A stretch of 35,776 nt of DNA from Candidatus Woesearchaeota archaeon (GTDB taxonomy: Archaea; Nanobdellota; Nanobdellia; Woesearchaeales; GW2011-AR9). The position numbers were made by a program, and so were the translations under genes. The notes under the pieces are model-generated. The model was not told the origin of the DNA and searched no databases. It was given only the letters and a program-made list of their open reading frames with translations. The stretch is from NCBI GenBank assembly GCA_018303265.1, contig JAGVYN010000013.1, forward strand, positions 1-35,776, read 5' to 3'. Below are positions 5,241 to 35,154 of this stretch, one piece after another (position 1 is the first letter of the stretch; each line of letters begins with the position of its first letter).

Positions 5241-5666
5241 CTACCGCAATACTTTTTCCACACACCCTTTCTGTTCTTCCAACCAGACACACCTGTTACC
5301 GGCGATTTTCACTGTATCAGTGAGGCAGTCATTGCTGTCAATGTAATCATGACAAGAAGTGATAACCTTTCCTCCCAATACTTTGCTGTTCTTAATTTTC
5401 TCATTCAAGTCGACTCCTTCCAGGTTCTCTCCTGCCTGCATCTCCATGCGAAGATTGAGCAAGGCTGATTCTATTTGCTTAAAACTTTCAAAATTTTCAG
5501 TGGCCCCTTTTAAAGACCCTTTTGACGCTATGAATAAGAGGATGCCAACAAAGAAGATAAATACAATCGATAAGAGAAGAATCAAAAAGAGATCCTGTTC
5601 ATTGATGCTGGCAGCCTGCGCCTTCTTATTGAAATGAAGCGGTTTCAGGCTTTGTCCTATTTTCAT
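5241..5666 (-). CDS. Small pilin-like membrane-anchored protein with Cys/Trp C-terminus
   Basis: FNKKAQAASINEQDLFLILLLSIVFIFFVGILLFI; C-terminal CHDYIDSNDCLTDTVKIAGNRCVWLEEQKGC; stop overlaps the upstream gene end. Confidence 0.75.
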   Translation of the reverse strand: MKIGQSLKPLHFNKKAQAASINEQDLFLILLLSIVFIFFVGILLFIASKGSLKGATENFESFKQIESALLNLRMEMQAGENLEGVDLNEKIKNSKVLGGKVITSCHDYIDSNDCLTDTVKIAGNRCVWLEEQKGCVEKVLR

Positions 5667-29658: not shown

Positions 29659-29988
29659 TTATGATTGTTTTTGAATTTCTAAACACCCTTTACCAGCACC
29701 ACCTAACACATTCCAGAAAGATAACAAATCTCGGGCCGATCTCATTTCCATTTGTTCCATGGAAAAATTGCTGAAAAACACTTTCACCTTATACTTCTTA
29801 CACAGTTTGATGTTAAACATCATGCGGGCAAGTAGTTTTGATCTCTGCGGAGAGTTTAAGATGTCAGAGAACGAAAAAGCAATGATTTTGTCTTTCTCTG
29901 CTGCAATTTTGCAAAGAATTTGATCCAATCCTCCCCGAACAAAATGAGTGCTCTCCTTAGGATGAATATGTTCTATGCCCAAAACCAT
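29659..29988 (-). CDS. RNase P protein component p30 (Rpp30), C-terminal part
   Basis: GGLDQILCKIAAEKDKIIAFSFSDILNSPQRSKLLARMMFNIKLCKKYKVKVFFSNFSMEQMEMRSARDLLSFWNVLGG; strong Rpp30 pattern, lacking the N-terminal part. Confidence 0.85.
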   Translation of the reverse strand: MVLGIEHIHPKESTHFVRGGLDQILCKIAAEKDKIIAFSFSDILNSPQRSKLLARMMFNIKLCKKYKVKVFFSNFSMEQMEMRSARDLLSFWNVLGGAGKGCLEIQKQS

Positions 29989-30000
29989 GCTTATTGGTGT

Positions 30001-30174
30001 TTATGTAAGAAGTTTTTTGGAAACAGCACGATTTGTTTTTAATAAAAGTTCTTTTTTGGTCTTGGCTTCAATGATGACCGCATCCGTTTCCAGAAACAAT
30101 GTTCTGGAAAATCCCAGCTTTGCACTCAGTTCCTCGAATTCTTGATTTTTTGGAAGTAATATAAGATTGTCCAT
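30001..30174 (-). CDS. RNase P p30 (Rpp30), N-terminal part, ending in an in-frame TAA
   Basis: Hand-translated MDNLILLPKNQEFEELSAKLGFSRTLFLETDAVIIEAKTKKELLLKTNRAVSKKLLT*; same frame as 29659-29988. TATA-like ATATATAAAG about 22-31 nt upstream. Confidence 0.7.
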   Translation of the reverse strand: MDNLILLPKNQEFEELSAKLGFSRTLFLETDAVIIEAKTKKELLLKTNRAVSKKLLT

Positions 30175-33646: not shown

Positions 33647-34474
33647 TTATATTCCTTTAAACTTCTCCAAACCAGCTTCAATCTCTTCTTCCCTCCACGT
33701 GAGCAAAGGACGAAACACTGTTAATGAAGTTGGAAGGGAAGAGAATGCGGCAAAGCGCTGATCGACAACAAGAACAGAACTATTTTTCACTTTTGCATAA
33801 CTCTCAATCTCCGGCCACGTTTTTACCTCCTCCAACCTTAATGGAAGCGGACTATATCTTTGGAGCAGAGAAATATCTTTGTCCTCAAAAGCAATAGGGA
33901 AAAGAGTGCAGCCCCTCCGCAGCATAGACAATCCTGCAAGAATGCTCGCCTTGGTTTCCACGAGGAGGAGAACTTTTCCGCCGGTTCCCACCGGCAAGCC
34001 GCCAAAACAGGGGATTGTTTCCAAAAACAAATAAGCCCCATCATTATTTATTTCGATATTGAAGATGGTGCGAGGATCCTTCGCGCTAAACACCAGATTG
34101 CTCTTTTCTTCGATAGACATGCCTATCTTTCGATTTAACTCCATGGAAGACAGAGGAAATTGTTTATCGGCTCGTTTGGTGATGATTTTAAATGTACCTT
34201 TCTTCCCTTGAAGAAGATCCAAGGCCTGTTTTTCAATTTCAGCTATATCTTTTTCAACTCGCACGGCCGGAGAATAAGAAACAATGCCAAATATTGCCCG
34301 CAATTGTTCATGAGGCACAAAGTAAGGGAGGATGAGCCTCTTTTGCGTTCTGGTCACGAATAAAGTCTTGCTCTGTTTTTTTATATTTTGGACAAGAATT
34401 TTTTCAAAAAAAGGGCGGTTTTTGCCTTTTAAGAAGATTTCCCCATAGCGCAGGAGTAAATGGGAGTAGTTCAT
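33647..34474 (-). CDS. ThiI-like protein (THUMP region plus degenerate PP-loop domain)
   Basis: MNYSHLLLRYGEIFLKGKNRPFFEKILVQNI (ThiI N-terminus), GGLPVGTGGKVLLLVETKASILAGLSMLRRGC at the PP-loop position, FRPLLTWREEEIE near the C-terminus. Confidence 0.8.
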   Translation of the reverse strand: MNYSHLLLRYGEIFLKGKNRPFFEKILVQNIKKQSKTLFVTRTQKRLILPYFVPHEQLRAIFGIVSYSPAVRVEKDIAEIEKQALDLLQGKKGTFKIITKRADKQFPLSSMELNRKIGMSIEEKSNLVFSAKDPRTIFNIEINNDGAYLFLETIPCFGGLPVGTGGKVLLLVETKASILAGLSMLRRGCTLFPIAFEDKDISLLQRYSPLPLRLEEVKTWPEIESYAKVKNSSVLVVDQRFAAFSSLPTSLTVFRPLLTWREEEIEAGLEKFKGI

Positions 34475-34624: not shown

Positions 34625-35154
34625 ATGGTAAAAAAAGACACCAAAAAGAAAATTAGGATTGTCAATATTGTTGTTTCAACCGGCTTGGAAAAAGATATTC
34701 CTTTAGAAAAGATGGCGGCACGGCTGCCGAACACTGAGTACAATCCGGAACAGTTTCCAGGGCTGGTGCTGCGGATAAAAGAGCCCAAGACCTCTGCTCT
34801 TATTTTTTCCAGTGGCAAAGTAGTCTGCACGGGAGCCAGAACTTTAGAGGAAGTAGATCGAAGCATCCAAAGTATAATCAAGAGTTTAAAGAAATTAAAC
34901 ATCAATGTGACCATTAAACCAGAAATCACCGTGCAGAATATCGTTGCTTCTGGAAGCATATTAAATTACCTAATACTGAATATGAACCTGAACAGTTTCC
35001 AGGACTGGTGCATAAATTAAAAGGGACCAATGCTACTTTTCTCTTGTTCAGCAATGGCAAGATTGTTTGTACAGGAACAAAGACCGAAGATCAAGTGAAC
35101 GAGGCGACGGATAAATTGATTGAAAACCTTAAAAAAGTGTTGAATAAGGAATAG
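34625..35154 (+). pseudogene. tbp: TATA-box-binding protein (TBP), frameshifted in the second repeat
   Basis: Frame 1: IRIVNIVVSTGLEKDIPLEKMAARLPNTEYNPEQFPGLVLRIKEPKTSALIFSSGKVVCTGA...ITVQNIVAS; another frame: KLPNTEYEPEQFPGLVHKLKGTNATFLLFSNGKIVCTGTKTEDQVNEATDKLIENLKKVLNKE*. SD GGGAGGGG upstream. Confidence 0.85.

What the first reader, a model, noticed from the sequence alone, without database searches (positions are those of the whole stretch)
34625..35154. TBP gene carries a 31-nt frameshifting deletion in its second repeat
In repeat 1, 15 residues (45 nt) separate VVS from LPNTEY; in repeat 2 only 14 nt separate VAS from LPNTEY, so 31 nt are missing and the frame changes. The remainder is well conserved and ends at a proper stop. 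TBP is normally essential, so either another TBP copy exists, the truncated 1.5-repeat protein works, recoding occurs, or this is an assembly artefact.
Basis: seen in the sequence. Interest (0 to 1): 0.7.

Follow-up and report, generated by a model that had tools for sequence, protein, structure and literature searches.

The report
Broken TBP gene, probable assembly error
The gene for an essential archaeal transcription factor looks broken here because 31 letters are missing, but several other core genes in the same draft genome carry similar abrupt losses or exact duplications of a few dozen letters, so this is most likely an error in stitching the genome together rather than biology.

Summary
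The only TBP gene in this Woesearchaeota-type draft genome (866 kb, 50 contigs, 83% complete) lacks 31 nt at the start of repeat 2. The lost stretch encodes the GMDLNLNVLG segment, and the rest is thrown into the -1 frame. No relative shares it: 77 of 77 full-length homologues examined and 56 of 59 related genomes (the other three gave no match) have an intact two-repeat gene. The sequence after the gap is fully conserved (32 of 32 near-invariant residues), so the lesion is either very recent or not real. The decisive evidence lies elsewhere in the same draft genome. A 324-kb sample (37%) holds at least seven more conserved genes broken in similar style: abrupt losses (-23, -38, about -45 nt), exact tandem duplications (+34, +25, +65 nt) and single-base shifts. 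Three comparison samples without N runs (828 kb) had no frame change or exact duplication. This matches published descriptions of scaffolding and local assembly errors. The best explanation is an assembly artefact. A real, recent strain lesion remains possible. Recoding or a working 1.5-repeat TBP is very unlikely.

The parts
34625..34954 (+). TBP repeat 1 and start of repeat 2, frame 0
   Evidence: Pfam TBP 1-85 of 85, E 4e-30; 54 of 54 near-invariant columns kept
34952..34970 (+). Junction of the 31-nt gap, between 34959 and 34960
   Evidence: single 31-column gap against eight homologues
34963..35154 (+). Remainder of TBP repeat 2, frame -1, to the TAG stop
   Evidence: Pfam TBP 28-84 of 85, E 2e-20; 32 of 32 near-invariant columns kept
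34625..35020 (+). Frame-0 reading as assembled: 131 residues, ends in an out-of-frame tail
29659..30174 (-). Second damaged conserved gene on the same contig: RNase P p30-like, about 15 codons missing and TAA at 30001-30003
   Evidence: Pfam RNase_P_p30 on the part after the stop, E 1e-5, below the curated cut-off

Best explanation
The frameshift is most likely a local assembly error, not a property of the organism. Shown: 31 nt are absent from the assembled sequence; homologues keep them; the same draft genome has other conserved genes broken by losses of 23-45 nt and by exact tandem duplications of 25-65 nt. Inferred: contig ends were joined without being properly overlapped. A true overlap left unmerged gives an exact tandem copy. 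A short unfilled gap closed up gives a deletion. At TBP the second happened, and the real organism carries an ordinary intact two-repeat TBP.
For: At least seven further conserved genes are broken in a 324-kb sample of the same draft genome: losses of 23, 38 and about 45 nt, exact duplications of 34, 25 and 65 nt, shifts of 1 nt. Frame-change clusters: 6 of 171 conserved stretches in G000 against 0 of 317 in three sets without N runs, p 0.0017, or 0.005 without TBP. Exact two-copy duplications: 4 in 324 kb against 0 in 828 kb. G000 holds N runs of 22 and 69 nt, so it was scaffolded. The TBP sequence after the gap shows purifying selection and keeps 32 of 32 near-invariant residues. No relative shares the gap. 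The gene lies 622 nt from the contig end. Such errors, including duplicated overlaps, are described in PMC7111523 (section 9 read).
Against: No reads were available. The assembler of this draft is unknown. G030, the closest relative in the DNA search, and G066 also show frame changes (4 of 113 and 4 of 92), so against all six comparison sets G000 does not stand out (p 0.10); grouping the clean sets by absence of N runs was done after seeing the counts, and G030's sample has no N run. A natural tendency to short indels in this lineage is not excluded.
Confidence: 0.86

Rival explanations
1. A real but very recent deletion, present in some or all cells of the population. It is lethal or nearly so unless another TBP exists in the unassembled 17% of the genome.
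For: The sequence can be read as a simple deletion. Conservation after the gap limits its age but does not exclude it: at most about 0.04 neutral changes per site. Second TBP genes occur in some genomes of the order (four matches in G043 and G048).
Against: At least seven other conserved genes in a third of the genome would have to be broken just as recently, several by exact duplications. The same-family genomes with a TBP all have exactly one two-repeat gene.
Confidence: 0.12
2. Recoding: ribosomes shift to the -1 frame and make a TBP that lacks the start of repeat 2.
For: Both frames are open and overlap around the junction.
Against: No X XXY YYZ heptamer in the overlap; the one at 34885 leads into a TAA at 34915 in the -1 frame (for the site, for the sequence). 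The product would still lack ten residues, six of them identical in 77 of 77 homologues. No relative has the arrangement.
Confidence: 0.01
3. A shortened protein (131 residues, one repeat plus tail) works as TBP, for example as a dimer.
For: Repeat 1 is complete and conserved.
Against: The unused repeat 2 remnant is under purifying selection like repeat 1, which a useless remnant would not be for long. No relative does this.
Confidence: 0.01

Closest known systems
Archaeal TATA-binding protein (PF00352; e.g. PDB 1ais_A, 1pcz_A)
   Same: Repeat 1 complete; what remains of repeat 2 matches fully; nearest homologue 95% identical over the first 110 residues
   Different: The segment aligned with GREFNLDVVA of 1ais_A is missing and the frame is lost
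Local assembly and scaffolding errors in metagenome-assembled genomes (PMC7111523)
   Same: Incorrect protein-coding sequences; duplicate sequence left where flanks overlap (section 9); here exact duplications and short losses in several conserved genes
   Different: The paper's overlap error has Ns between the duplicate flanks; here the copies abut. The read-support test that identifies such an error could not be run

Membership tests
Archaeal TBP | Two PF00352 repeats in one open reading frame | tested here: not met
   repeat 2 partial and in the -1 frame as assembled
Archaeal TBP | Conserved residues of both repeats | tested here: met
   54 of 54 and 32 of 32 near-invariant columns outside the gap; the six near-invariant columns inside the gap are absent
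Local assembly error | Consensus at the junction lacks perfect read support | not testable with these tools
   no reads held
Local assembly error | Similar unexplained losses and exact duplications elsewhere in the same assembly | tested here: met
Local assembly error | Absent from assemblies of relatives | tested here: met
   0 of 77 homologues share the gap
Programmed frameshift gene | Slippery site in the overlap and arrangement conserved in relatives | tested here: not met

The most novel reading that the evidence does not exclude
A living archaeon transcribes with a TBP whose second repeat is broken (a 131-residue one-repeat protein, or a recoded protein without the start of repeat 2), as part of a lineage with an unusually high rate of short deletions and tandem duplications.
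Probability: 0.01. Interest if true: 0.85.

Novelty: not a real feature. Interest (0 to 1): 0.1.

Why it matters
If the gene were really broken, archaeal transcription could run without a complete TBP, which would be very surprising. As it stands the case is a warning: this draft genome, and perhaps G030 and G066, should not be used to claim gene loss or recoding without looking at reads.

Tried and rejected
Second TBP copy: searched by family and by DNA in the window's own genome; none. Same-genus genome for comparison: only G000 itself is held. Recoding: a heptamer scan of the frame-0 ORF found two sites, neither in the overlap. Long direct repeats at the junction as a cause of real slippage: with the conserved codons on both sides I can fit at most about one shared base (inference). 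Stop-codon reassignment for the p30 TAA: not pursued, because the stop sits beside a missing stretch. A first frameshift survey mixed in spurious antisense ORFs; it was replaced, which drop overlapped ORFs.

Rows dropped: one search counts frame changes only, so the p30 stop and the CDP-alcohol transferase duplication in G000 are not among its six clusters. In-frame stop clusters listed (G000 1, G017 2, G030 3, G010 1) were left out of the p-values; apart from p30 I did not examine them further. I inspected by eye only the G000 events, not those of G030, G034 or G066. The 29-nt duplication in L208 lies in a low-complexity stretch and may be natural. One search had used a looser repeat rule (15-120 nt, near-complete copies) and listed 42 events in G030, 6 in G000, 2 in G010, 1 in G017 and 1 in the mixed loci. 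Seven of the 20 G066 stretches are wholly N.

Full report
What is there. The window is one whole contig (C35, 35,776 bases) of a draft genome of 866,278 bases in 50 contigs, 83% complete. Its nearest named relatives by TBP are Woesearchaeota drafts. The TBP gene starts at 34625. Repeat 1 is intact. After VASGS the frame breaks and the frame-0 reading ends at 35020; repeat 2 goes on in the -1 frame to 35154. Aligned with eight homologues, the DNA shows a single clean 31-column gap between 34959 and 34960, where relatives encode GMDLNLNVLG or nearly so. The gene ends 622 bases from the contig end.

Is it shared? No. Of 60 genomes searched, G000 included, 57 have TBP matches. The 56 relatives among them carry both repeats in open frames of 186 to 272 residues without stops; three relatives (G005, G018, G027) gave no match. 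Of 80 homologous loci from named genomes, 77 give a full-length TBP and three run off their contigs; all 77 keep six residues of the segment that the window lacks. G000 is the only genome of its genus held, so no second copy of the same species could be read.

Is the gene decaying? Compared with L042 (about 79% identical in DNA on both sides of the gap), synonymous sites are saturated while nonsynonymous distance is 0.025 before and 0.057 after the gap. After the gap, 32 of 32 near-invariant columns are kept. Under neutrality this allows about 0.04 changes per site at most since the event (95% bound). The sequence therefore evolved as a working two-repeat TBP until very recently, or still does.

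What settles it best. I sampled 20 stretches of the same draft genome, together with the window 324 kb, and compared them with proteins of relatives. Conserved genes are broken repeatedly. On the same contig an RNase P p30-like gene (29659-30174, minus strand) lacks about 15 codons and carries TAA at 30001-30003. Elsewhere: an Lhr-type helicase (my naming; Pfam DEAD_assoc) loses 23 nt (L199 near 13435). Fpg loses 38 nt (L196 near 4339). A GT4 glycosyltransferase has an exact 34-nt tandem duplication (L210, 788). An STT3 oligosaccharyltransferase has an exact 25-nt duplication (L212, 5828) and a 1-nt shift near 5509. A CDP-alcohol phosphatidyltransferase has an exact 65-nt duplication (L213, 1604). 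A conserved protein without a Pfam hit in the part scanned has a 1-nt shift (L201, 3868). In the three coding duplications one copy reads in frame with the upstream part and the other with the downstream part, as expected when two overlapping contig ends are laid end to end.

Controls. Frame-change clusters in conserved stretches: G000 6 of 171; G010 0 of 173; G017 0 of 98; nine loci of other relatives 0 of 46; G034 1 of 114; G030 4 of 113; G066 4 of 92. Exact two-copy tandem duplications of 20-120 nt: G000 4, G030 13, G034 2, and none in the other four sets. Against the three clean sets G000 is clearly worse (6 of 171 against 0 of 317, p 0.0017; without TBP p 0.005). Against all six sets it is not (p 0.10). 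G030 is the genome of L042 and G034 that of L062, judged by equal contig lengths; the titles of both name scaffolds. G000 and G034 contain two short N runs each and G066 one of 14 nt besides wholly masked contigs; G010, G017 and the nine loci contain none, and neither does the G030 sample. The split roughly follows scaffolding, but I drew it after seeing the counts, and a lineage effect shared by G000 and G030 is not excluded.

Mechanism (inferred). Joining contig ends without merging a true overlap leaves an exact tandem copy; closing an unfilled gap deletes a few dozen bases without a repeat at the junction. Both signatures occur. PMC7111523 (passages, section 9 read) states that leaving out curation propagates incorrect protein-coding sequences in databases, suspects IDBA-UD assemblies especially of local assembly errors, and describes scaffolding that leaves duplicate sequence, with Ns between, where flanks overlap. 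Which assembler made this draft is unknown. A relative gives a small parallel: in G061 the TBP gene is cut between two contig ends that overlap by about 69 query bases.

Rivals. A real recent lesion needs reads to exclude. Recoding lacks a slippery site in the overlap and could not replace the missing residues. A functional one-repeat TBP does not explain why repeat 2 stays conserved. The missing segment aligns with GREFNLDVVA of the solved TBP 1ais_A, which I recall as part of the first helix of repeat 2, near the TFB contact. A paper on DPANN genomes reports RNA polymerase subunits, TFB and TBP conserved in about 88.8% of tested genomes (PMC8407392, one passage). My search for papers naming both TATA-binding protein and Woesearchaeota gave two; I saw a passage of one and only the listing of the other.

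Verdict. Observation confirmed; most likely an assembly artefact (0.86).

Noticed in passing
window 29659-30174, minus strand: RNase P p30-like gene with about 15 codons missing and an in-frame TAA at 30001-30003; many relatives have an intact copy, often within a few kb of TBP.
   Followed up: yes
L196, L199, L201, L210, L212, L213 (other contigs of the same draft genome): Six further conserved genes broken by short losses, exact tandem duplications or single-base shifts.
   Followed up: yes
L237-L255 (G030 sample): The closest relative's draft has many short tandem duplications (42 events by the loose rule) and four frame changes; some are multi-copy repeats and may be natural.
   Followed up: partly
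window 33647-34474, minus strand: ThiI-like protein of 275 residues with ThiI_fer and THUMP domains but no Pfam hit for the catalytic part.
   Followed up: no
window 4086-28469, minus strand: A long run of genes on one strand for proteins with N-terminal hydrophobic segments, including ORFs of 2107, 1499 and 844 residues; looks like a secreted or cell-surface gene block.
   Followed up: no
G061:C22:1-435 and G061:C16:1-195: In another relative the TBP gene is cut between two contig ends inside repeat 2.
   Followed up: no
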